DNA of 64,000 nt from Umbilicaria muhlenbergii (taxonomy: Eukaryota; Ascomycota; Lecanoromycetes; Umbilicariales; Umbilicariaceae), in contig KK106984.1 in NCBI GenBank assembly GCA_000611775.1, positions 464,364 to 528,363 on the forward strand, in the 5' to 3' direction. A program made the translations under genes and the position numbers. Each line of letters starts with the position of its first letter. Position 1 is the first letter of the stretch. A model generated the notes under the pieces. It made no database searches and had not been told where the DNA came from. It saw only the letters and a list, made by a program, of their open reading frames with translations. Below are positions 22,934 to 60,920 of the stretch, piece by piece.

Positions 22934-23309
22934 ATGGCGTTAGTAGTACCCTAATCCCCTTCTAGATCTTTACTTATGCTCTTTCCATTTCATGAACGCT
23001 AATTCTAAACAGAGACTCTGATCACAGTGACGATAAGGGCAATCGTGATTCCCCAAAGTCACATACCCAGCCTTTGGACCAGCAACACCTTTCGAAGATC
23101 CATGAATACCTCCAAGAGGACGACCAATATAGAGCCTTCCTCTGCGGAAAAAGTACGGAAACTCTTGACAAAACGAGCCTCTTGAAAGCTTGGAGTGAAG
23201 ACTGGAATCGAATGAGTGGCACGAAAGAACATGACAGAGGTAATGTTGACCTGTTACTTGCAAGGAATTGATAGGTTGCTAACACGCTACAGTCAAGTCG
23301 AAAATCTGA
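22934..23309 (+). pseudogene. Copy A of a small-protein family ending in a PTS1-like SKI
   Basis: The conserved part (about 23020-23239) reads IHEYLQEDDQYRAFLCGKS, LLKAWSEDWNRMSG and KEHDRG. The donor GTAATG follows in phase 1, a 53-nt intron contains CTAAC, and the last exon (23293-23309) codes V-K-S-K-I-stop. The upstream start, ATGGCGTTAGTAGTACCC at 22934, matches the start of copy B at 26508 but meets a stop after six codons, so the N-terminal hydrophobic leader is lost or spliced differently. Shared with copies B, C and D: the motif, the intron phase and the short tripeptide exon. Function unknown; peroxisomal import is inferred from the C-terminus. Confidence 0.45.
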
Positions 23310-23601
23310 AGTGAAGCGGATTGTATAAGGCTCTGGCCGTTGGAAGATCGTAAGGCTGCAACTCAAAGCGGTCTCAGCATTAGGACGGACCGTCCGACTG
23401 TGTGTTCTCATAGGGTTGATTGGCGTTCATTGGCTTTTAGACGTGGGATGGCGCACCGTCTGTTATACTTATTTCTGAACTTGTATTTCGATCGCCGTTC
23501 CGCGTGTGTTACATCGTAAGAGTATCGGACATAAGTCATGCATAGAGGAGATTTTTCCACTGGGAAACTTAGCAAAATCAACTGACAGATGTGTGGACAA
23601 A

Positions 23602-23760
23602 TTAAGTGAGTCATCAGCTAAGGGTCCACCTGTTAATGCAGAGATGATGAAAGGACAAACGCTCATAACATTCGCCTTAGAAATTTAAATACATCGCTTT
23701 TACTGTTATGATATTGAGGAGGGCTCCATATATTAGCTGAAGACTGTCACTTATTTTGTT
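23602..23760. mobile_element. MITE-like element, copy with both termini
   Basis: The left end AAGTGAGTCATCAGCTAAGG and right end near 23742-23757 (TTAGCTGAAGACTGTCACTT then ATTTTG) are inverted relatives. The inside contains 'cctgttaatgcagagatg', shared with the next copy. About 155 bp, non-coding, AT-richer than flanks. Confidence 0.5.
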
Positions 23761-23861
23761 TATGCATCTACTGATTGTTTTCCCTGTATTTATGACTTAT
23801 GTCTGATACTTTTACAAAATCTCCCCTGTAAGCAGTGAGACGGCCGGCAGGCATGTGAACA

Positions 23862-24049
23862 TAAAGTGACAGTCCTCAGCTAGGGGTCTCCTCAAATACA
23901 CAACAACTAGAACGGACTTTTGAAGACCAGTTAATGCAGAGATGGTAGAAGCCATGAATCCCTGGAATATTCACTTCAAGGACTTAGACATATCGCTTTC
24001 ACCGTCGTATTCTTGAGACGGCCCCCGGCTGGAGGCTGCCACTTGTTTC
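23862..24049. mobile_element. MITE-like element, best-preserved copy
   Basis: The left terminus AAAGTGACAGTCCTCAGCTA then GGGGTC, and the right terminus GCCCCCGGCTGGAGGCTGCC then ACTTG, are imperfect inverted repeats of about 26 bp. About 188 bp in total with no coding capacity. Internal 'ccagttaatgcagagatggt' is shared with 23.63 kb and, inverted, with 14.24 kb. The superfamily is not certain; the size and long termini suggest a MITE of a cut-and-paste DNA transposon. Confidence 0.6.
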
Positions 24050-26507
24050 TTTCCACATGCCCGCGGGTTCAATATTGCTCATCCCCGGATGAGAGGTTTC
24101 CGACAATGTGGATGTTTCAGCTTGCGCGACGACCCCACCGCAGTCACAGTCGTACACTCGGCTACCTTATTTCGGCGACGTAAAGATACCTTAGGCAGCA
24201 GCGGTGCATTCAATTGGAAACATGACGCTGATACTCTGCAATGTACACTCAGCTGATTGTCAGCTTCCCCAATTGCTGCTTAAGGATGCTGGGTTGGCCG
24301 GCGAAACAGGCGCGGAAGTAAAGGTATCCGGCCAAACTTGGGCCGTAGGGCCAGCACATTGGTTGTACGGTGCATGGATGGTGTGACAATCTCGGCAGCA
24401 AAATCCATCTGCATGTGGACCGCAGTCATGAGCGACGACTGGAGGTAATCTTACCACGGGTCCTACCGCGACATTCCACATGGCAAGGACGAACTTGTGT
24501 ATGTCATCATGTCAGATTGGCACAGTGTTGGTGCTGCACTGCCACGTATGCCGAAAGTACACTGGGCTCCGCCCGCCACAGCAGCCAGCCACAGCTGACG
24601 TTGGATAAAGTACCTTAGCCTTCAACGCCTCATTTGTAGCCTTGCAGGGAAAGCGCGAAGACTATTTTGGATATGTCCCCGTCACACCAAGGTTTCGACA
24701 AGAAGCTGCATACTGGATGACGAATACTGTTCTCACTTGAGGGGTGTGCCGAAGAATCGGCAGGCCGGGACGAACTAGCAATTCAATTAAGGCAGGGTAG
24801 GCGCCAGCACTCAGAAACGGGGCATCGACAATTTGACAGCTTGCATAATGCGTGCACTTACCTAGGTGCGATTACTCAACCAACATTTCTCTCCCCCGCC
24901 TCGGTCCCGAGCCAACAATGTGTCCGAACGGATGGGCCAGACTTACAAATCCAACATCAGTGTTACTAGCCTCGTCCCTGAGGCTCTAAGGACAAAATCT
25001 CCCTCCTACCATCTCACCTATCTACAATTACACGGTCAGGCCCCCCGCGCTAAGCAAGGGTAAACGCTCGGGCGAAAGTCATCTGAAGTACTACGGAGCA
25101 CCAATAGGTTTGATGCTTGGCAAATTGGAAGTGCCCTTCGTGTGTAACCTGCTCGTCCGGAGTTATGAAGAGCATCGACGATCATCAGGAATATCGGGTT
25201 TATTATCAGCAGCTTCTAGATACACGTTCAGTGCAGGGCATGTTGACCAAGCTGTCAGGTGGGCGCGGGACACGTCTACACCTATCACGCGTTCTACCGG
25301 GTTCCCCTAACATTTTCCGATACGCCAGACAATTTTGCTGTTCGCATGCCTCCGAAAAGCCCTCGACGATAAGGCGTCCATTTGCTGTTCGCATGTCTCC
25401 CGGAGAGCCCTCAACGATATCCGTAAGGCGTCCAACATTCGCTACCAAAATACTGACCCAATCAGGCCCCTACCAGTTGCGGATTCTACACCTCTCGCCT
25501 GCTACCCACGCCGAACACAGATACGCTTTCTGCCTTACAAGAACACATCACAGCTGAAGCGGTCACATCGCCCTGCACCGAACAACCGCATGCGCGATCC
25601 CGGAAAGGAAGGGAGAACAACACGTGCCGAGGAGAAGATTGACGATCCCAGCATCATCCATCTCCACCGCATCAGCATCGAATGAGAGGCCCCAAAAGTG
25701 CGCATAGCTCCGTACACTGGTAAGATTACCTACGCTTGGCAGAAAGGAAGCACATCCCAACCATCAGCTTACTTCTTCGTACGGAGGTACGAAGTTGTTC
25801 CTGTGTAACGGTGCATGCACCTTCCCTCATACCCCTCCCCCTCCTACCCACACCCAAATCCAGCACCACCCCCAGCACCCACCCCTGTCGCATCTCCCTG
25901 AACAAGCACGCCGTCCAAGCCCCGGTCCGAAATTGTACCTTTCAGCTTGCCAACCCTTCGCCAAAACCCCGGCACACCGGGGTAAGCGAACGCCGTTTAT
26001 CCCTGCGAAAAAAGCCACTTCGCATAATTCGTGAAGACAGCTTAAATAAGGATTTGTGCGTCGCGAATCTCTGCAGGGAGCCGTCGACGAGTCAGACGTC
26101 TGGCACTGGCCCTGGACCCTGGTATGGGAGGAGGGAGGCTGTTGGCTACCCGAGGACGGCGGGGAGGTGGATGTGGAAAGGGTGGGTGCGTCGTGGTGCG
26201 ACCGTGGGCTTGGTGATGAAGGGATGGATCGGGGGTCTCTGCAGAGGAGGCTCTGGAGGGGGGTGTTTATATAATTGCTGCCGTGATGGAGCGAATGACA
26301 GTTTTTTTGAGTTGGTGAAATATCGTACTGCGGACGGCTCTGGCTATCGTCACCACCATCATCATCATCGTTATCATCAGAAGGGGCATTATTCATATCG
26401 TCCCGTGGAGAGCCCTCGCACTCAACCGCACTCCTAGGACTCTTGACTGATCCTACACCTCGTACCGTCCGATCCGCCATCAGTCAAATAGACAGGTCTC
26501 ATTCAAC
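24050..26507. other. Gene-poor stretch with a 47-bp duplication and codon-like microsatellites
   Basis: A direct duplication lies at 25334-25380 and 25381-25434 ('tttgctgttcgcatg...aggcgtcca', about 85% alike, the second copy 6-7 bp longer). Around 26340-26385 a CAT/ATC-rich microsatellite produces an acidic-looking minus-strand frame. No gene is supported. Confidence 0.4.
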
Positions 26508-26931
26508 ATGACGTTAGCACTACCTATCTCATTCCACTGTCTACTGTTTGTTCTAGCCGTCGGACCCGTCTCTCCTAACCCCTTCAAAGTATCCCCTCCA
26601 CCCACAACAATCAACCAAACCGAAACAACAATTCCCCGGCGCATCAAACCCCACCGCCGCCTGCCCAACACCCTCCTTCCATCCAAATCTACCGTCGCGA
26701 ATTCGATCAATACCGCGCCTTCCTCTGCGCCCCCCCCGACGAAGCAGGCATGCAAAGAAGACACCGGGAAGTGTTCCAAGCTATCGCGGCGGTCGACTCA
26801 ATCGACAACGATAAGGGTAAGTGGGGCTGGGTAGCTGGTGGGGCTTGCCGTTATGGCGTCTGTGGCGTTGTGGCTGTGTGGCTGAGTCGAGCGGGCTGAC
26901 GAACCGTTTAGCGAAACCCTCGAGGCTGTGA
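26508..26931 (+). CDS. Copy B of the small PTS1-ending family (SRL)
   Basis: The ATG at 26508 gives a hydrophobic leader MTLALPISFHCLLFVLAVGP. The conserved core AQHPPSIQIYRREFDQYRAFLCAPP...EVFQAIAAVDSIDNDKG (26663-26816) is open in a frame shifted by two. A possible 44-nt intron (GTTTGT at about 26549, CCTAAC, AAAG) would restore the frame; otherwise there is a frameshift. After the core the donor GTAAGT occurs in phase 1. The 95-nt intron ends GTTTAG, and the last exon (26912-26931) codes A-K-P-S-R-L-stop, a valid peroxisomal targeting tripeptide. Same architecture as copies A, C and D. The N-terminal structure is unresolved. Confidence 0.45.
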
Positions 26932-29106
26932 GGCGGGGAAGAGCGGCATCTTTCGTCCTCCGTGTGGACTGCTGCATCCATGGCCGGGCGGGAGCTTAGG
27001 TTAGACGGCTAGGCGAACTGGCGGTCTGGCGTTTCGGGAGGCTTTTTCGGGAGTCTTGGGAAGGGCATACTTTTGTACATGAGGGTGTTTCGTGAGCGAT
27101 CGGCTGGGTCGGTTGCCAACTCTACTTACTGCGCCTTCTGCGGGCCGGGATATGGGACCATCTGGCGCTCCTCGGCTTTACAAAAGTCGGTCGACGCAGC
27201 ACAGTTTGCTCGGTAGTGATCGTGAGATAGCAGGCCTATCAGCGAAACAGTCCAAAGCCCTCTCGCTCCTCTGGGCTCTTCTATCCAACAGTATGATCGC
27301 TTCGCTTGCAGCCTGTCTTCCCTGCACATATTTATTGAATCCTTGAAACAATGATGCCTCCGCCTATAGCACCGTTATTGGCCTGGCGTCTAATTAGGCG
27401 GACTTTCGATATTACCGCTCGGACCTTCGTGCGTGAGGACTCAGAGGTGCCCCCATGCGAGGGGTAATTATGATATAAAGTATACGTTTTAGCGTTGGGA
27501 CGCTTTGGCGGTGTCGGGGTTGCTCGCAAATCATCAGGGAGATTTCGCTAGCTGTACATCAACATCAAGACAGCACATCAAAGACTGCTGCTCGCACTAG
27601 CACTTCAGCAGGATTCGCGTACACGGCTTCGCGTACACCTCTCAATGCTGGGTTCTGCTACTGGACTGTTCGCATAGGCTTCTCTAACACTTACCTTCAT
27701 TGGTATCTTGTCGCCTTAGGACTAGCGAGGCACCCCCCTTGGTACTCGCAGCTAGAGCTTGATGCCCAATGACACCGAAGGCTGAGCTCCAATAGACGGT
27801 GAGCGGTAAGGTGTCCTACCCTTGACAGTTGGCCAATTCGACTCCAGCGTGTGGGCACGCGTGTTGGCACTCGTGTTGGCACTCGAGCGAGTACGCGCAG
27901 ATAGGTCTGGCTGGGCCTGTGAGCCGGAGCTACCCAGGAAAAATGCACGGGAACCTCCACCCCGGAACCCATTGCGCGTAGCATTTGCTTCGTAAAAGCC
28001 TCCATCGCTCGACATCCCGCCTTTAATGGCGCCACTGAAGCGCGTACTGGAAAGCAAACAGCCAAAGAGCCATGCTCACTGTAATCGGGCGATCGCAAGC
28101 TACGTGTTCGCGCGAGCCACAGCAGTGAGGGGTGGCGAGATGTCATGTTGATGAGGTCGCGGGGTTCGGAGATTTTCATGCGGCGACACAGCAGTCGCAT
28201 AGGCGAGAATGTGATGCGCTCCAATGAAGTACCATAATCGATAAATCCCTAGTCGGAAACGTCATCTAATTTTGACAGACCATCAAGATCGAGAGGCTGC
28301 ACCAAGGTTTGCGGCTTGCGCACGGAGGGACGGGTCCCCACAGGACTATGGTATGCGGCCCTGGTGGCTGAACCTAAGGTACTATCATGCTTTTTAGGCT
28401 TGTTGCTTCAGTCGAAGGTGACCGTAGCAGCGCATCCAGGGCCAGTGAGACCAGTGTCACCAGTCGAATATGGAGATTCGCATCAGAGTTCGGCGAAGAT
28501 GTCGAGGGCCCCCACGACAATGCGCTAGAGGAATGACCGAGGACTGGACAGCGGCGCAGCGGGTCAGGCGCGAACTTGTATGCCTTGGACTAGATCATGT
28601 ATCTTGCCGGTACAGTTGCAGCCAATATGGTTCCATGCACCTTTGACAGCATCGACACAGCCGCCCAAGCCAAACGGATGACAAATCCCCGCTGTCAGTC
28701 TCAAAAGGGAGATTTATGCGACCGCGTATGTACAAGCTCTGTCCGAACTCCGAAGAATCAGGTGTGTGCCGTGTACAGCGTATGCTGTACCGTACGGTTA
28801 TATCCGTTCCTAGCTGTGGAGGACTGGGATATCCTCATATCCTCATTGGCTCCATCGGATAGAACGGTCCACCTTTCTAGGACTATTGGCAGAGCCAGTA
28901 CCCTGGAATGTCTCGGCTGCTGACAGCAAGCTTGCGGAAAGTCGAGTGACGTGGACGAAATAGGCGAGTCCTGGCTAGGGCTTGAGGCCTTTCAGAATGC
29001 TGCATCTTCGGATGTAGACTTTATATAGACGTCTCTGTGATGCAGCTGTCTCTTACTCTGGCTAGCGGACTCAAACCCTTCGTGACTGGCAGTTCATAAA
29101 CACAAT
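26932..29106. other. Gene-poor stretch
   Basis: A 12-bp tandem repeat (gtgttggcactc and variants) lies at about 27845-27895 and gives Val-Pro-Thr-Arg repeats in a minus-strand frame. No supported gene. Confidence 0.4.
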
Positions 29107-29571
29107 ATGAGCCCGGCAGTATTGTGTCCCTTTATTGGTACAACCATCCACAGGCAAAGCGTGTGGTCGAGTACTCGCATGGACGGCGAATACAAGAAGA
29201 AAAGTCCCATGCGCGATGGGGTAGTCTGGACCCTCTCCCCTTTCCTCATCGTCATAAGGCTAGCCCGGGCTAATTTGATTTTCTGCGGTGAGATCGAAAC
29301 AAAGATACCCTACCGCTCGTGTACCAATAGCGATGCACCACCCTTTTCTCCCGCAGTCCAGATCTACCTGCAGGAAGTCGAGGAACATACAGATTTTCTA
29401 TGCCGCGAGCATCAGAGAGCAACGATAGAACACGTACTGCGACGGCTTATGTTGCTATGTGGAGTCGAGACTGGGATCATATGAGTGGTGCCGAAGTTCA
29501 AAGCAGAGGTATGAGTTGGCAAGCATGGAAACGAATGATGCTGACATATTCTAGGCAGCTCAAAGCTGTGA
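29107..29571 (+). pseudogene. Copy C of the small PTS1-ending family (SKL), frameshifted
   Basis: The frame from 29107 (or the internal ATG at 29209) includes a hydrophobic segment WTLSPFLIVIRLARANLIF and then SPAVQIYLQEVEEHTDFLC, matching the family core. The rest of the core, YVAMWSRDWDHMSGAEVQSRG, continues in another frame, so one frameshift lies near 29400-29430. The donor GTATGA follows in phase 1. The 46-nt intron has CTGAC and ends TTCTAG. The last exon (29555-29571) codes G-S-S-K-L-stop, a canonical PTS1. The match to copy A over AMWSRDWDHMSG versus AWSEDWNRMSG is the best between copies. Confidence 0.42.
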
Positions 29572-31898
29572 AACGGCACATGGGTCTTGGAAGAAACCGA
29601 ATTTGCTGTCGTGGAGTAAGACTGTTCACGAGTGGTTTTCGGGTTAGGGAATGGGAAGGATGAGATGGATCGTTGCCTCGCTTGGGTCAATAGTTTGCCA
29701 AGTCCTCCTTATCGATAGTGGCACGGGTGGATCTTCTGCTCGTAGCTCGTGCCCAAAAATTCCTGAAACGCGGTCGAACCGTGGAACGTGGAAGGAGCCA
29801 GGCTGCTCAGATCGAAGTTTCCCTGTTCAGCTTTTCGGGCTTTGTGATAAATTTTTGAATACGAGGCTGAAGAAGTTAGTTGCAGTCTCCTGAGTTTCAG
29901 AATCAGCTCTTCGCATCTCCAGTGCTCCGGAGTGACCGTCTCTTGGTGGTCATTACACACCTCCTTCGTATCCCCAATCTGAAACTGGCCTAAAGCAGGA
30001 GGGAAGACTAAAGTGCCCACTGGAAGGCGAGATGCCGTAGCGCCCGGAATCTAGGCCTCGCTACCTTATGTTGCTTGGGATGATTTGGCTCCGCCAATCT
30101 GACGCTCTCCCAGCGGCCGGCTTCCTAGCGACCCCCCACTTTAGCGAGCAGGATGGCATGGGCTCTGGCGTCATTTCTTCGTTCATGCATCTACGCGACT
30201 GGACGGTCGTCGTAATCGCTGGGTTACTTGGTCGCAGGGCAAACGTCGGTTGATGCTCGCGGGCGCTTCTGATCTGATCTAAAATCCATAGCAATAGAAC
30301 GCGCAGCAAAAGGATCAGTCAGGTGGTCCTAGTGCGCTCTGGGAGCCTCAAACCGCGTGCTGGGAAACACTAAATGGCTAGCCATTGCGCACTTCTTCCC
30401 TCCTACTTCGTTACTGATTACTTCAACAGGTAATATCGACAGCGATCTGGCTTGGAAGAGCAATCACTTAGTTCCAATCTGAGAGTCACAACACTTGCCA
30501 ACACGCAGTTGTGTGCGCAGTGCTGTTGCCTTCTTTAAATGCCTCGAAACCATTCACATTCTGCTCGTACTAAGTAGAATTCTCGTACCTGTTCTGCCAA
30601 GGGTGGATGCACCCGATAGGATCAGCATAAAGGATTGGTATGTTTGTCGACGAGGCAGCTTGCGAGGCATCCCTGTTTTCGCAAAGATGACGGGGATTTG
30701 AAAGATCAAGCGTACCTTAATCATGCGATCTCGTGTTATTTTTGCCAGCATACCCGGCGGTGATCCACCAATACCCCGTACTGTGGGCCCCACACCAAAC
30801 GAAGTATCGTAGGCTAGAATGACACAAGACAACGGGGTAGACGACGCTGGACGGGAAGCAGAAGCTTCGATCCGAAAATGAAACAGAGGAAAGTTCGAGG
30901 CCGGGGGCTCGTGCGAGTAATCCCTGTGGGAGTTGCGACAAGGTACCCCACGAGATGTATGAATAAGGTACCTTAGTAGTCTGGCTCCCGTGCTTTCGGC
31001 ATGATGCCTGAGCGCAATGCGCCAAAAGAATGGGGGTCCACGGCCAACGGAGTACTCGAAGTCAAAGCGAGACTTCCGTCATAAGCATTGAAGATCTGCC
31101 ATGCAGCAGGCTGCTTGTTGTTTGCGAATGGGAAAGCCAAGTGGGGGTGGCCGAAAGTAAGACGCTTCGACAATCGGTACGGAGGAAACTCTGTTCGTCG
31201 GGAATGCCGAACACCAGATACAAGGGGCGTGGATGGCTGGCACGAACGACGACGTGCAGAGCGAGAGCTGCCGCAGTGCAAAGTAAGGTAAGGTAGGTTC
31301 ATGTACAAAGAAAGGGCTTGGGGCAGAGGCGAAGTGCGAAGGGCGCACCACACCCTGGTCCTGGCGCACCTGCCCCTTCGCCCTACAAAAGGCCAGGGAT
31401 GTCATGGAGCATTGGCATCTGTCAACGGCCTGCCGTGCATCATTTGCCAATCGTTGGCTGGCTGGGTGGTGGTGGGCCTAAGGGATCGTTGTGAGCCGGC
31501 AGAGCGCCGCTGGTAAAGTTCTTACTCGGTCAGGGCCAGAGGAAAACGCGGGCACAACACAAGTGGAGACTGGAGCTGGAGGGGATGATAAGATACATTT
31601 GCCTTGTTTGACACTGGGCTTGGAAAGCACGCATCTTAGCTATAGAGTCAAGGCTGCCCTCCTTTTCGCAGACTAAATGCGCCCATCTCACACCGAGCCA
31701 GAGCCAAATGTCAACGGTAACTACGCTTGGCACCTCTTTCACTCCTTGGCAGCCGCATCCGCATCCGCGTCCGCGTCACTTCCCACCGCTCTCCTCCCAT
31801 ACCTTAGTCCCCTCTCATTATTGAGACTTGCCCGGAGTCATCTTGATCGCTTTCGAATCACTCAGAACTAACCCTACACCTAAGACAACCCGTCCACC
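29572..31898. other. Gene-poor stretch
   Basis: No supported gene. The last 150 bp are pyrimidine-rich (with a short gcatcc/gcgtcc repeat near 31750-31775), compatible with a promoter for copy D. Confidence 0.4.
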
Positions 31899-32312
31899 AT
31901 GAGGTATGTGCTACTTGAGAGTCGCTCTTGGTGTTTCAATCGCTGTTGCTTTCGTCGCTTATACTCGATACGCCATGCAGTACATCCAACGACCGCACCC
32001 ACAACCCGACCTCTTCGCCAACCGGTCGGGATGTTCGAACGGCCGATCCTCAAATTCCCCGATCGGTTCAACACCCTCCAGGCATCCAGGAACATATCAA
32101 AGAAGAACATCGATATAAAGCCTCTTTGGCACGACAACTCGAAGGGTATCCGGATAGACGCGAAGGAAGAGCACACTGGGTCGACGAGTGGGACAAGATG
32201 TTCGAGGGTTTGGGGAGCGATGGATGTGATGGTTCAGGTAAGTCACAGACATAGTCCTCCCATGCGGTATACCGAAGCTGATCTTGTCTTCATAGAGACG
32301 TCGAAGCTTTAA
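31899..32312 (+). CDS. Copy D of the small PTS1-ending family (SKL)
   Basis: The ATG at 31906 begins MCYLRVALGVSIAVAFVAYT, a good signal-anchor helix; an ATG at 31899 also exists in another frame. The family core QHPPGIQEHIKEEHRYKASL...EGRAHWVDEWDKMFEGLG (about 32060-32237) is open, but one frame off the leader; I could not find a convincing intron to join them. The donor GTAAGT is in phase 1 after DGSG. A 58-nt intron ends TTCATAG, and the last exon (32296-32312) codes E-T-S-K-L-stop. The 138-codon frame from 31899 read straight through the intron happens to end at the same SKL stop. Least decayed copy of the four. Divergent neighbour: none close; the FAD oxidoreductase ends convergently at 32547. 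Confidence 0.48.
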   Translation: MRYVLLESRSWCFNRCCFRRLYSIRHAVHPTTAPTTRPLRQPVGMFERPILKFPDRFNTLQASRNISKKNIDIKPLWHDNSKGIRIDAKEEHTGSTSGTRCSRVWGAMDVMVQVSHRHSPPMRYTEADLVFIETSKL

Positions 32313-32546: not shown

Positions 32547-33929
32547 TCAACTCCCGAGCTTATGTTTGTATCTTTCCACTGTCATGCGGAAGGCCTTCGG
32601 GAACCACTGGTACAACTCTTCCTCATCGCCACCAGCCATCATAGTCGCCAGAGCCTTTGCCGACGAGAAGCACAACACCATGCCATGACCCTGAAAGGAT
32701 GCCGCAATAGACAATCCATCCATGTCGGGTATCTGGCCAATAAGAGGAAAACCGTCCGCCGAGTATCCCATGATCCCAGACCACTCCTTCCGTATTCTGC
32801 CATCCTGGTGATCCTGGCCCCAATTTCGATCAAAGTACTTTTTCGTACTGTCGCGAAGATAGCTGATGATGACAGGATCCGTTGTCGTATCGTCCGTGGT
32901 CCCAAACTCATACAAGCCTCCTTCAGCCGCTTTCGTCAATCCACCACCGATGATGACATCGCCAGCAAACTTCGAGCCTGGCCGTCGAGAGATCATGTAC
33001 TCATACCCGCCATCATATATGAACGAGTACGTGTACTTCAGTCCTTCGATGGGCATACCGTTCCCAGGCATGTGGGTCGTTACATGACCCCGCAGAGGTA
33101 CGATGACCCCTTGCAATGCCGGATACAAATACGCTGTATAGCCATTCGTCGCTAGAACCACCTTTTGCGCCTCGATACTCCCTCGTGGTGTCTCGACAAG
33201 CCATTTCCGCCGGCACCCGCCACTCTCGCCGCGTCGCGCAATCGATATGGCTGGCGTCTGGGTCTGCAGATTCAACTCTTTATCAACCAGCAACCCCAGA
33301 AGGCCAATCACGAATTTGTATGCGCTTAAGCTCCCCGCCTCGTACGTCAAGGCTCCGACCGCTCCCGGAGTTAAGAATTTCTTCTCGGCCTCCTGCCCAC
33401 TCAACCACTCATACCTCGACGCCGGGTCATGCTCACCCAATATCCTTTTCATCTCCGCCACAGCGTTCTTCGCTTTTTCCCATTCCGCTTCATCATACAC
33501 CACATCTACAGTCTCTCCTTCCCAGCTGTCGCACTCTATTTTATGTTCCCTTGCGAACGCATGCACAGCTTTCATAGAGCTGTATTCGAACCGCGCAATC
33601 TTCGCCGCCTCGGCCTCACCTAGCGAAGCTACGTTGCCGAGGAAAGAGCGGTAGGACGCGCATTTTGTGTGACCTCCATTACGGCCTGTGGCGCCGCTAC
33701 AGGCGGTACGCGCTTCGAGCATCACGATCGATGGCGGAGATGGCTGCTCGAGAAGACTGTAGGCGACAACGGTACCGGTGATGCCAGAGCCGATGACCAC
33801 GATGTCTGTGGAGGATGGAAGATCGTTCGTCGAGCGATGATTAGCAAGAGGAGATGGCGGATCTTGCCAGTACGACATGGTGGGATTCGGCCGTGGAATC
33901 CCCGGTGGTATGGTAGCGCGTTTTTCCAT
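32547..33929 (-). CDS. FAD-dependent oxidoreductase (DAO family)
   Basis: Single exon of 460 residues. I start at 33929 because that ATG sits in a CCACCATGG context; the frame is open 19 codons further upstream. The dinucleotide-binding motif VVIGSGITGTVVAYSLLE lies near residues 44-61. It is followed by LEARTACSGATGRNGGH, the usual second FAD-contact motif of the D-amino-acid-oxidase/GlpD superfamily. The C-terminal part has GIMGYSADGFPLIGQIPD and AASFQGHGMVLCFSSAKALA, the FAD-binding tail of the gamma-glutamylputrescine-oxidase-like (PuuB/ordL) subgroup. Oxidises an amine or amino acid and makes hydrogen peroxide; exact substrate unknown. The C-terminus (YKHKLGS) is not a peroxisomal signal. 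Confidence 0.88.
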   Translation of the reverse strand: MEKRATIPPGIPRPNPTMSYWQDPPSPLANHRSTNDLPSSTDIVVIGSGITGTVVAYSLLEQPSPPSIVMLEARTACSGATGRNGGHTKCASYRSFLGNVASLGEAEAAKIARFEYSSMKAVHAFAREHKIECDSWEGETVDVVYDEAEWEKAKNAVAEMKRILGEHDPASRYEWLSGQEAEKKFLTPGAVGALTYEAGSLSAYKFVIGLLGLLVDKELNLQTQTPAISIARRGESGGCRRKWLVETPRGSIEAQKVVLATNGYTAYLYPALQGVIVPLRGHVTTHMPGNGMPIEGLKYTYSFIYDGGYEYMISRRPGSKFAGDVIIGGGLTKAAEGGLYEFGTTDDTTTDPVIISYLRDSTKKYFDRNWGQDHQDGRIRKEWSGIMGYSADGFPLIGQIPDMDGLSIAASFQGHGMVLCFSSAKALATMMAGGDEEELYQWFPKAFRMTVERYKHKLGS

Positions 33930-34482
33930 GGTGGCTGGTGGTCCTCGGTGACAGAGTATATTGTCAGATCGTAATTGACCGCCCAAAAAGGGCGGGAATG
34001 CGTTTTATCTACATCTTTAGGTGGAGAGGGGAAAGAAGCGTCGTCCCGTCTGGGGCTGGAGTTTTGTACGAGGCTGAGGTTTGACGCTTGTCTTCATCTA
34101 GCTAGTCGCAAGTCTGTTGCATCGAATTACGTACGGAGAAGTCTCTTCCATCAAGATAATGTAAATGTGCGCCCTTGTCCTGCATTGACATCTCTGCATA
34201 AGAGAATTACAGCTGGGCATGGTCATGCAGATGACCCTGCTACCTTCAACACCTCGTTCGAAACTGAAGCGGTTCCACCCGCAGAAAGACGTTCGGGAAC
34301 ATTCACCAATGCCGAGGACGGGTATTGAGAGCAAATGGCTTTGATAAGTAGCTAAAGACCGAAGCTACCTTTCCCACTACTCTACTGCGTTCCCCTCCTA
34401 TTGCTTGTCTTGCTACCGTCTCCGAGACGTTCCGTTGCGAGCTTAGACCACACTGTCGGCTATTTGGGTCTGTTGATGAGTT
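33930..34482. other. Intergenic
   Basis: Promoter side of the FAD oxidoreductase and 3' flank of the next minus-strand gene. Nothing recognised. Confidence 0.4.
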
Positions 34483-57477: not shown

Positions 57478-58068
57478 TATGGTAGTTTCATGAAGCATCA
57501 GACTAACGGTCTATCTCAAGGTTATACATGGGGTTCCGAAGTTGCGCATCTTTGCGCACAGTAAATTACTTATGCCCTAGAACTTGACGCAGGGTCCACT
57601 ATACTATTACCTCGCATGACCGTACAGTATCCCCTTCCGCTTCTCGGCCTTGTTCCGTCCCCAACTTGTGGCTCTTCACTAGCTGTGTTATCTCACTTGT
57701 AATACACCCCATGGGTTATTTTCGGTTATCGCAAAAAAATAACCTCGGGGCCCAAAAAAGCAAGTTATTCACCCCCACCCCCACCTAATAACTACTTTTT
57801 TTGGGGGGGCAGGTTATCTCGTGGGTTATTCTTACGTTATAGAGTATTCCTGCTTATCGGCGCGCCTGGATTAATTCAAATATGGGGGAGCAGGCCTCCC
57901 TCACCGCTTTTTCATGCTTTCCATGCTTTCCATGTCCTTGTGCTGGGGCAATATCGTGACTTTCTTCTGCTTTGAGCTTTGCTGAAGCATTCCCTGCCTT
58001 CCTTCTGCTTAGCAGGCCTCGTTTTTGCCTTTGCGCCTGTAGAAAGCTCGCCGCCGGCCATTTTCACC

Positions 58069-60920
58069 ATGACGACGTCAATTGAGGTCCAGACTGAGAT
58101 GTTCGAGGCCCATGCCCGTGCCCTTGCCCTACGTGACAGCTGTAGGGCAGCGAATACGCACCGGAATTACAAGGGGCCGATCAAGGAGTGGAAGGTCTGT
58201 CCCCGCCTCAAAGAAGCCAGGGTGTGCACCGGTCAGCTGACTTTGTACAAGGACTGGTGCCTTAAGAAGGGCTTCGCGGACGGGATAATGGTCTACGAGA
58301 AGAAAGCCGTCCTCTTCCTGTCTTCAGAGGTCATTGACCGGCCCCTACGGGGCGGGGGCAAAAAACACAAACGGGAGACGCTGGCATATCAGAGCATCCG
58401 GACGAAATACGTGGCCGCCCTCATGTATATGTACGAGGCGCAGAAGTCGGATGAGCAGAACCACCACCCCAGTCCTTCTGGGGCAGCGTTGAAGACCCTA
58501 ATGGAGTCTCTGAAGAGGAAACAGGCCCAGGCACGGCGAGACGCCTTTGAAGATCATGCCCTGGGAAGCCTGCTCGACTCATACGACATCGTGGGTATGA
58601 GGAAGGTTATTTCAATGATGTGGAGCCAGACCTCCGTCCCAGAGCAGTACCTCCGGACGACGGCTAATTTCATTATGAGCCACCTGCTCATACTACGGGG
58701 TGAAAGCATGCGGATCACCGAGCTTCCAGACCTCTTTGTCATTGATTTTGACAATGAGGGTAGCCAATGCAAGGCCCTGGTCCTTATAAAGGACAATGGG
58801 AAGACCAACCCATCCGAGCTTCCAGACCTCTTTGTCATTGATTTTGACAATGAGGGTAGCCAATGCAAGGCCCTGGTCCTTATAAAGGACAATGGGAAGA
58901 CCAACCCATACAGGAAGATTGAGCACTGTGCCATGATGCGGAACAAAGAGCCCCTGCTCTGCGGCATGAGTGCCCTTGCGTTCTACTTCTTCTGAAGGTG
59001 GCACCGCACTGACGAGCCCTTCCCTACGTTCAGGGCTCGCAAGGAGTGGTACCGGACCCGCATGTTAATCAGGGAGCGGAAGGATGTCACCAAGCCGCTG
59101 CATTACAATACGCAGCTGGATTGGATGAAACGGGCTTACGACGAAGCCCATGTGCCTGTCATGAAGCCAACACATGGCAACCAACCCGGTGGGGCTCGTC
59201 ATGCGGAGCGGGCAGGCGTGGATGAGTCCCAGGTACGTCAATCTCATATTCACTGTTTTGATTTCCGCTTCTACTTTTATGCTATTTGAACGCCGTTTTT
59301 GAATGTCTGTTAAAGCATTTTAATTATATGTTTCAGGTTTACCCCTGATTTGAACTTTTTTGACGTCGGATTTCTCTTTCTGCGTCCATTTCCCGGGTCG
59401 GACGACAGCCCCGCCGACGTCGCCATCTCACAGAAATTGAAACCTCACTTGATGAGGCTCAAATTTACGGGTCCTTTACTTCAGAATGAGGCCTGCCTCC
59501 GACAAATGTCCTGGGTTGAGCCGAGCAAGACCGGTCTTGCAGCGTTGTCACCGCCGTCAGCCCCTATTCCTGCCGCCGGGCTGTCCGACTTTCTCAGTTC
59601 TTCTCTGTTGGACCTCATACTTATGTCGGGCAGAGGGTCTATAGGAAATCAATGGACCTGTGAATATGAGCCTGATCAGACAAGGTTTTGATTTTAGAAG
59701 GTCTCAACGTTACAGCCGTTTTGATTTTTCCTGGAAATTCCTTTCTTTGAGGTGCACTTCGCCACTGCTTTGTCTGGTGTAACCAGGCACGCTGTTTTTA
59801 TGTTTCAGAACTACCCCTGGCTAACTATTTCCACTGATAGATCCGTCGGGCTGGTCATTGAAACAATGATCAGATGAGCAATGTTTACCTGTCCAGCCTG
59901 CCCCGGGAGTTTATCTGTACCATGGCTGGCTTCCGTCGTCAAGGAAGCTTCTACTGCGCTAGGGCAGATGTGGTGCCTCCACAGGAGGTCAGTCAACACG
60001 TCTTCTCAGACGTTGAGGGTTGGCTTGCCTGTTTTGACGGCGTTGAGGGCTGTGAAACCCTGGAGTCTGATCTTGCTGAGCAAGGGTTTCTCAGGCTTCT
60101 GCAGGAGCTTCGTATCATTTTCCTGCAGGACTCAGCCATTCTACGGCCCATGTTCCCATCCCACCCGATATGGGAGCACCCCCTTTTTGAGACGCCTGCT
60201 TATCAGGCTTTTGCGGCCGAGGTCCTTGTGGCTCATGCTAAAACAGAAGTGCCTGAGGACCTGCAACTCCGCGCTGACATGCCTGTCATGGAGGAGAAGA
60301 TTTCGACTCTGCAGCAGGTAATTGAGGGAAAGGTGGATTACTGAGGCCAACACAACTCAGTCAAATTGGACGTTGTGGACGGCCATCTACAAGACATCCT
60401 ACAAGGCAGAATGGAGTGGACGCTTACGCCTACACGGCGTATTAACCCGGCTGCTGCTGCGAATGCTGCAATTCATTTGAATTTAACTGCCCCGTCAGCA
60501 GCAGAAACAGCCTCTATTGATTCTCAGCTGCAGGCAGCCTCAATAGAAACCTTTCCTGCTTTCCCTGATTTGGAGGAGTCAAATGCAGCAGATTCTGCTG
60601 CTTCGCCGCCTGATTTTAGCATGTCTCGAACCCTGACAACTGTGGCGGAAGCATGGCAGGAGTGGACTGCAGGCATTGCAGGGCGGCCTTCAATTCAGAG
60701 TCTTGAAGACGCCTGGGGCCCTGCGTGGAGGAAATTGCAGAGGGAGAAGATGTTTTACTCCCGCAGGAAGGTCCTGATCGATGAGATTAACAGGCGTACT
60801 GCAGAGAGTGACTCATGCAGAGCTGTGTCTGATTTGGAACAGTTACGCCTTCAAGGTAGAAGATCATTGGATGCTCTGCAGAAGCTGCTGAAAAAGCAGC
60901 AGAAGGATGCTCTGTTGTAA
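58069..60920 (+). pseudogene. Tyrosine recombinase with GCR1_C-like domain, three in-frame TGA
   Basis: Exon 1 (58069-59232) starts MTTSIEVQTEMFEAHARALA and has NTHRNYKGPIKEWKVC, FIMSHLLILRGESMRITELP (first Arg) and GGARHAERAGVDESQ (H-x-x-R box). A 608-nt intron (59233-59840) precedes IRRAGH-stop-NNDQMSNVYLSSLPREF, holding the nucleophile Tyr at 59885. The tail contains MSRTLTTVAEAWQEWTAGI, RPSIQSLEDAWGPAWRKLQR and SRRKVLIDEI, the GCR1_C-like DNA-binding region seen in fungal Crypton proteins. TGA stops at 58993, 59859 and 60342 replace codons expected to be CGA, TGG and CGA. A perfect 96-bp in-frame duplication lies at about 58718-58909. This copy is inactive; the frame is otherwise clean, so decay is recent. 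Confidence 0.82.

What the first reader, a model, noticed from the sequence alone, without database searches (positions are those of the whole stretch)
22934..32312. A local family of four small genes, each ending in a tiny exon that codes a peroxisomal targeting tripeptide
Four loci (22.9-23.3, 26.5-26.9, 29.1-29.6 and 31.9-32.3 kb, all +) share a core like Q-I-Y-x-x-E-x-x-x-Y-R-A-F-L-C followed by a W-x-x-D/E-W segment. They also share a phase-1 intron at the same place and a last exon of only 17-20 bp. Joined correctly, the last exons code VKSKI, AKPSRL, GSSKL and ETSKL, each followed by a stop. SKL and SRL are classical PTS1 signals, and SKI is a close variant. Three copies also have an N-terminal hydrophobic helix. 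The peptide exon can be gained or skipped by splicing, so targeting could be switchable. I know of no described family with this plan. Copies A and C carry coding damage, and the leader-to-core frame is unresolved in B and D.
Basis: partly seen in the sequence, partly recalled or inferred. Interest (0 to 1): 0.82.

Follow-up and report, generated by a model that had tools for sequence, protein, structure and literature searches.

The report
Tandem small genes with peroxisome-tag micro-exons
A stretch of fungal DNA carries four side-by-side, strongly diverged copies of a tiny unknown gene whose last 17-20 bases, reached by splicing, spell a peroxisome address tag, while the supposed membrane-helix start is really an intron.

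Summary
Four related loci lie head-to-tail at 22.9-32.3 kb (+). Each has a phase-1 intron, then a 17-20 nt last exon giving S-[KR]-[LI]-stop (SKI, SRL, SKL, SKL). A window scan for such exons behind consensus donors finds only B, C and D. With any GT it finds A-D plus two antisense places.

The "N-terminal hydrophobic helix" is an artefact. In A, B and D the core frame has no upstream ATG, and a 74-77 nt phase-2 intron directly after ATG+2 nt joins start to core in frame. A, B and D are then open three-exon genes of 82, 83 and 92 aa: a tail without predicted structure, a helical hairpin, a PTS1. C has frame lesions and is probably a pseudogene.

No significant relative in Pfam, NCBIfam, PDB, IMG/VR or GTDB. 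No fungal collection could be searched.

Best reading: a tandem array of small peroxisomal-matrix proteins with PTS1 micro-exons. Switchable targeting is possible but has no support beyond the exon's position.

The parts
22934..22938 (+). Copy A exon 1 (ATGGC, 5 coding nt)
   Evidence: start context TTCAAGATGGC
22939..23012 (+). A second in-frame acceptor would make it 89 nt
23013..23239 (+). Copy A exon 2: polar tail, then core KIHEYLQEDDQYRAFLC ... WSEDW
23240..23292 (+). Copy A intron 2, phase 1, 53 nt, branch CTAAC
23293..23309 (+). Copy A exon 3, 17 nt: V-K-S-K-I-stop (PTS1-like)
26508..26512 (+). Copy B exon 1 (ATGAC, 5 coding nt)
26513..26589 (+). Copy B intron 1, phase 2, 77 nt (GTTAGC...CTAAC...AAG)
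26590..26816 (+). Copy B exon 2: core SIQIYRREFDQYRAFLC; W-x-x-D-W absent
26817..26911 (+). Copy B intron 2, phase 1, 95 nt, branch CTGAC
26912..26931 (+). Copy B exon 3, 20 nt: A-K-P-S-R-L-stop (PTS1)
29216..29220 (+). Copy C probable fossil exon 1 (ATGGG before GTAGTC)
   Evidence: read from the sequence, by analogy with A, B, D; not in frame with the C core; inferred
29221..29292 (+). Copy C probable fossil intron 1, 72 nt, with CTAAT
   Evidence: read from the sequence; inferred
29293..29508 (+). Copy C exon 2, broken: VQIYLQEVEEHTDFLC in one frame, WSRDWDHMSG in another
   Evidence: start inferred
29509..29554 (+). Copy C intron 2, phase 1, 46 nt, branch CTGAC
29555..29571 (+). Copy C exon 3, 17 nt: G-S-S-K-L-stop (PTS1)
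31899..31903 (+). Copy D exon 1 (ATGAG, 5 coding nt)
31904..31980 (+). Copy D intron 1, phase 2, 77 nt (GTATGT...CAG)
31981..32237 (+). Copy D exon 2: GIQEHIKEEHRYKASLA ... WVDEWDKM
32238..32295 (+). Copy D intron 2, phase 1, 58 nt, branch CTGAT
32296..32312 (+). Copy D exon 3, 17 nt: E-T-S-K-L-stop (PTS1)

Best explanation
This is a head-to-tail array of four copies of a small three-exon fungal gene, three apparently intact and one broken. Exon 1 holds 5 coding nt, exon 2 nearly the whole protein, and exon 3 the 17-20 nt that supply the C-terminal PTS1. Shown from sequence: homology, intron positions and phases, frames, PTS1 ends. Inferred: after normal splicing the 82-92 aa protein is made in the cytosol, the Pex5 TPR domain binds its SKL/SRL/SKI end, and the protein enters the peroxisome matrix. 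Inferred with less certainty: being very small and without any known enzyme domain, it works there as a non-enzymatic helical-hairpin adaptor or modulator of another matrix protein. The copies have diverged strongly while the address tag was kept, most simply by selection.
For: Core homology above shuffles. A, B and D have no in-frame ATG upstream of the core, yet each has ATGNN|GT...AG of 74, 77 and 77 nt that joins the start in frame; such a model (5-nt exon, 70-80 nt intron) arises in 7, 7 and 15 of 2000 shuffles of the upstream DNA, and with a CTNAY branch in 5, 5 and 6. In all four copies the PTS1 acceptor is the first listed AG with a CTRAY branch site, which begins 14-18 nt before the end of AG. 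The tripeptide is kept although its codons differ (TCG/TCG/TCA/TCG, AAA/AGG/AAG/AAG, ATC/CTG/CTG/CTT, read). A neutral-drift simulation puts keeping a broad PTS1 plus stop in all four at 3.1e-3, 2.2e-4 and 1.0e-5 for assumed pairwise p of 0.3, 0.4 and 0.5. Third-position differences in the core are 11, 11 and 13 of 22 codons (A-B, A-D, B-D). The joint chance that the exon-2 codons of A, B and D (75, 75, 85) stay free of stops under substitution drift is 9e-3 to 4.5e-4. AlphaFold on A exon 2 with four aligned rows: residues 1-22 without structure, helices 23-48 and 53-68, mean pLDDT 69.8, pTM 0.30.
Against: No transcript, protein or localisation evidence. The loci were noticed partly for their PTS1 ends, and the 70-80 nt window of the intron-1 test was set after the models were seen. 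Selection on the core is not clear: in the 22-codon block synonymous against non-synonymous codon differences are 4:9 (A-B), 2:14 (A-D) and 4:12 (B-D), and first and second positions differ nearly as often as third. SKI is outside the [SAC][KRH]L signature used in PMC5309816. C is broken; B lacks W-x-x-D-W. No relative was found outside the window. The fold model is low confidence. The matrix function is inference. The drift figures assume independent copies, a star tree and an SKL ancestor.
Confidence: 0.68

Rival explanations
1. Splicing-switched targeting. Retaining or skipping the last intron makes a cytosolic form, and splicing makes the peroxisomal form, as in cryptic PTS1 isoforms of fungal glycolytic enzymes.
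For: The whole PTS1 sits on its own exon in four of four copies. Dual localisation by alternative splicing is known in fungi (passages of PMC3798809, and PMC4207609).
Against: Retained-intron ends look unrelated by eye: GNVDLLLARN, GKWGWVAGG..., a long run in C, GKSQT. No alternative acceptor is visibly shared. D keeps ETSKL when wholly unspliced, and an alternative 40-nt intron in D also ends ETSKL. None of this excludes a switch without a conserved second end.
Confidence: 0.14
3. A decaying pseudogene array, in which the PTS1 ends are leftovers without present function.
For: C is broken. The copies are strongly diverged without a clear excess of synonymous change. Ten ORFs tested between 20.9 and 31.1 kb have no Pfam match below E 0.05, so the interval looks gene-poor.
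Against: Exon 2 of A, B and D is open and all four copies keep S[KR][LI]-stop at about 50% third-position difference.
Confidence: 0.1
4. The proteins are real, but the C-terminal tripeptides are coincidence and they act in the cytosol.
For: No localisation data. Matching ends occur by chance elsewhere: S[KR][LI] at 36.9 and 60.8 kb with any GT, and the broad rule at 1.45-1.48, 17.9 and 28.1 kb.
Against: Four of four copies, with varied codons, in a configuration rare in the window.
Confidence: 0.04

Closest known systems
Fungal PTS1 isoforms made by alternative splicing (Ustilago maydis GAPDH; Freitag et al. 2012, not read, seen only as cited in passages of PMC3798809 and PMC4207609)
   Same: PTS1 reached by splicing at the 3' end of a fungal gene
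   Different: Those are conserved metabolic enzymes with a cytosolic form. Here the proteins are tiny, of no known family, and the PTS1 end is the only end seen in common between copies
Colletotrichum higginsianum ChEC51a and ChEC96 (PMC5942036, passages seen)
   Same: Fungal proteins with a PTS1-type C-terminus
   Different: Those are effector candidates drawn with a signal peptide; here the apparent leader is an intron
PEX39 (PMC12339391, passages seen)
   Same: Small (recalled) protein linked to peroxisomal import
   Different: PEX39 has DUF5572 and an (R/K)PWE motif; no such Pfam match and no PWE in A, B or D
HEX1/Woronin body protein (recalled)
   Same: Fungal peroxisomal protein that ends in a PTS1 (recalled)
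   Different: HEX1 is eIF5A-like (recalled); no such domain was reported here

Membership tests
PTS1 peroxisomal matrix proteins | C-terminal [SAC][KRH][LMI] directly before the stop | tested here: met
   4 of 4 copies: SKI, SRL, SKL, SKL; SKI (A) falls outside the stricter [SAC][KRH]L
PTS1 peroxisomal matrix proteins | Pex5-dependent import in cells | not testable with these tools
   needs GFP fusions
Splicing-regulated dual-targeted proteins | PTS1 encoded beyond a splice junction | tested here: met
   predicted in 4 of 4 copies; no RNA evidence
Splicing-regulated dual-targeted proteins | A second, non-PTS1 isoform in use | tested here: inconclusive
   retained-intron ends unrelated by eye in 4 of 4; expression not testable here
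Secreted PTS1 effectors | N-terminal signal peptide in frame with the mature protein | tested here: not met
   A, B, D: the leader is intron 1; C not resolvable
PEX39 (DUF5572) | DUF5572 domain and (R/K)PWE motif | tested here: not met
   no such Pfam match at E up to 10; no PWE in the A, B, D proteins
Any Pfam, NCBIfam or PDB family | Significant profile match | tested here: not met
   Pfam: PETase E 0.049 on A and TtuA_LIM_N E 0.45 on an open piece with the C core, both under cut-off, none on B and D; NCBIfam none on A, B, D; PDB best E 1.1

The most novel reading that the evidence does not exclude
A previously undescribed, fast-evolving fungal family of peroxisomal microproteins in tandem array, in which splicing of a 17-20 nt last exon gates entry to the peroxisome, so each copy is a cargo switched by splicing efficiency. 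Gene finders would miss its 5-nt first exon or misread the gene as a secreted protein.
Probability: 0.15. Interest if true: 0.72.

Novelty: new variant of a known kind. Interest (0 to 1): 0.5.

Why it matters
If right, a set of tiny peroxisomal proteins without recognised relatives has been overlooked, because its first exon (5 coding nt) and last exon (17-20 nt) are hard for gene finders to resolve (established knowledge, not tested here). It also shows a trap: a pyrimidine-rich first intron, read as protein, imitates a signal peptide and could be filed as a small secreted protein. Tandem copies with varied codons but a constant targeting tripeptide offer a natural test of how strongly selection holds a PTS1.

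Tried and rejected
Relatives elsewhere: alignment A1 in viral contigs (38 pattern stretches, 0 confirmed), A1 in genome contigs (91 stretches, 0 confirmed), A exon 2 alone in viral contigs (17 stretches, 0 confirmed). By their descriptions these collections are viral and prokaryotic, so the misses say little. More copies in the window: none convincing by profile. DNA repeats: none of the 16 direct families holds all four copies; one 20-nt family pairs B with D. A fatty-acid-response site CCTCGG/CCGAGG (motif recalled) within 1 kb upstream: 0, 2, 1 and 0 sites in A-D, no pattern. A fold search was not run: a two-helix hairpin at pTM 0.30 would match too much.

Literature: 7 searches. One search found 0 papers with 'pts1', 'last exon', 'intron', 'skl' and 'fungal' together. 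The others listed 20 of 37, 10 of 10, 12 of 26, 1 of 1, 10 of 21 and 10 of 10 papers; by title and start of abstract none describes this family. Passages, not whole texts, were seen of five papers. This is no proof that the family is not in print.
Full report
Observation. The four loci are there. From the sequence and the splice models, each has a phase-1 intron near its 3' end and a last exon of 17, 20, 17 or 17 nt that gives VKSKI, AKPSRL, GSSKL or ETSKL before a stop. The A, B and D cores and two pieces of C are related: z against 1000 shuffles is 14.1 (A-B), 7.8 (A-D), 7.8 (B-D); the C start piece gives 4.5 with A, 7.9 with B and 1.3 with D; the C end piece gives 9.1 with A, -0.7 with B and 3.4 with D. 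A profile from A, B and D finds the C pieces only at E 0.024 and 0.18, just ahead of the next hit at 0.27, and nothing better elsewhere in the six frames. So C's membership rests on pair scores with A and B plus the shared exon plan.

Chance. I scanned both strands of the window for an open frame of at least 35 codons, a donor, an intron of 45-110 nt and a last exon of at most 30 nt ending S[KR][LI]. With consensus donors (GTRNG), 7 combinations arise in 874 donor-phase cases, all at B, C and D. The broader rule [SAC][KRH][LMI] gives 13, the extra 6 lying at 17.9 and 28.1 kb on + and at 1.45-1.48 kb on -. With any GT, S[KR][LI] gives 31 in 6615 cases: 25 at A-D, 4 at 36.9 kb on + and 2 at 60.8 kb on -. 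Twelve dinucleotide shuffles of one strand gave 0-10 combinations with any GT (mean 3.9) against 29 on the real + strand, and 0-3 with consensus donors (mean 0.5) against 7.

The leader is an intron. In A, B and D the core frame contains no ATG upstream of the core; the only in-frame ATGs lie late, at 23212, 26750 and 32198. In each, an ATG is followed after two more bases by GT, and an intron of 74, 77 or 77 nt with a CTNAY branch site and an in-frame AG opens the whole protein. Counting any ATG and GT in the 220 nt upstream, A has 4 in-frame models (two with the 5-nt exon, introns of 74 and 89 nt), B has 1 and D has 2. A model with a 5-nt exon and a 70-80 nt intron arises in 7, 7 and 15 of 2000 shuffles of the upstream DNA, and with a branch site in 5, 5 and 6; that length window was set after the models were seen. 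Position (5 coding nt) and phase (2) are the same in all three. A, B and D are therefore open genes of 82, 83 and 92 codons. C shows the same plan as a probable fossil: ATGGG before GTAGTC at 29216, with a CTAAT near the end of a 72-nt stretch (read by eye). That start is not in frame with the C core; a start a few codons earlier would be in frame with the first C piece, by eye, but the core then still breaks before the W-x-x-D-W part. I take C as a pseudogene and did not mend it.

The PTS1 exon. For all four last introns I listed every AG from 40 to about 140 nt after the donor. The PTS1 acceptor is the first with a CTRAY branch site, which begins 14-18 nt before the end of AG. In D an AG at 40 nt, without such a site, would also end ETSKL. 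A retained last intron would give four ends that look unrelated by eye, so a conserved second isoform is not visible; that does not exclude one. The tripeptide codons differ between copies while the residues stay within the broad PTS1 rule. Under neutral drift from an SKL ancestor, with assumed pairwise differences of 0.3, 0.4 and 0.5, the chance that all four keep a broad PTS1 and stop is 3.1e-3, 2.2e-4 and 1.0e-5. The third-position difference in a 22-codon core block is 11, 11 and 13, but non-synonymous differences outnumber synonymous ones (9:4, 14:2, 12:4), so the core itself shows no clear purifying signal at this divergence.

What the protein is. Pfam up to E 10 gave only sub-threshold hits: PETase on A at E 0.049 and a LIM fragment at E 0.45 on an open piece with the C core; none on B and D. 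NCBIfam gave none for A, B and D, PDB at best E 1.1, and IMG/VR and GTDB no confirmed relative. AlphaFold on A exon 2 with four aligned rows gives an unstructured first 22 residues and two helices, 23-48 and 53-68, with mean pLDDT 69.8 and pTM 0.30. I commit to a small imported matrix protein that acts by binding rather than catalysis. The import step follows from the known role of PTS1 (established knowledge; passages). The binding role is inference from the small size, the predicted hairpin and the lack of a known enzyme domain.

Setting. The window looks fungal: a Rox3 mediator-subunit gene (fungal by recall) and GCR1_C/NDC10_II genes. A Pfam-recognised amino-acid permease ends about 17.5 kb, and a FAD-dependent oxidoreductase lies at 32547-34004 on -. 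Ten ORFs tested between 20.9 and 31.1 kb gave at best E 0.051 and 0.054, both under cut-off. A, B and C have a TATATA about 190-275 nt before the start; D has none within 1 kb; no chance level was computed.

Comparison. PTS1 by splicing is known for fungal enzymes (PMC3798809 and PMC4207609, passages; the original Nature paper was not read). Effector candidates with a signal peptide and a PTS1 are known (PMC5942036, passages), but here the signal-peptide test fails. PEX39 (PMC12339391, passages) fails by domain and motif. I file this as a new family of PTS1 proteins with an unusual micro-exon plan, not as a new kind of system.

Limits. No RNA data, no fungal proteomes and no localisation data were available. 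The organism was not identified.

Noticed in passing
31899-32312 (+): Copy D is also open from its ATG to the stop without any splicing (137 codons) and still ends ETSKL; the two introns add up to a multiple of three. 10 of 5000 mononucleotide shuffles of 31902-32294 stay open. This reading has no Pfam match up to E 1.
   Followed up: partly
26508-26834 (+): Copy B read through intron 1 gives a 108-aa ORF with a signal-peptide-like start and no Pfam match; automatic annotation could call it a small secreted protein.
   Followed up: partly
57976-60920 (+): NDC10_II and GCR1_C domains over three ORFs: looks like a Crypton-type DNA transposon (label recalled).
   Followed up: no
8.2-8.6, 14.1-14.3 and 23.9-24.1 kb: Six-frame pieces of these places match each other at about 48-91% over 17-28 residues, on both strands: probably a dispersed repeat, one copy just downstream of copy A.
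   Followed up: no
about 22659, 26268 and 29022: TATATA 190-275 nt upstream of the starts of A, B and C, not found within 1 kb of D: possible common promoter element; chance level not computed.
   Followed up: partly
23516-23815: Inverted repeat with 33-nt arms, 85% complementary, 234 nt apart, just downstream of copy A.
   Followed up: no
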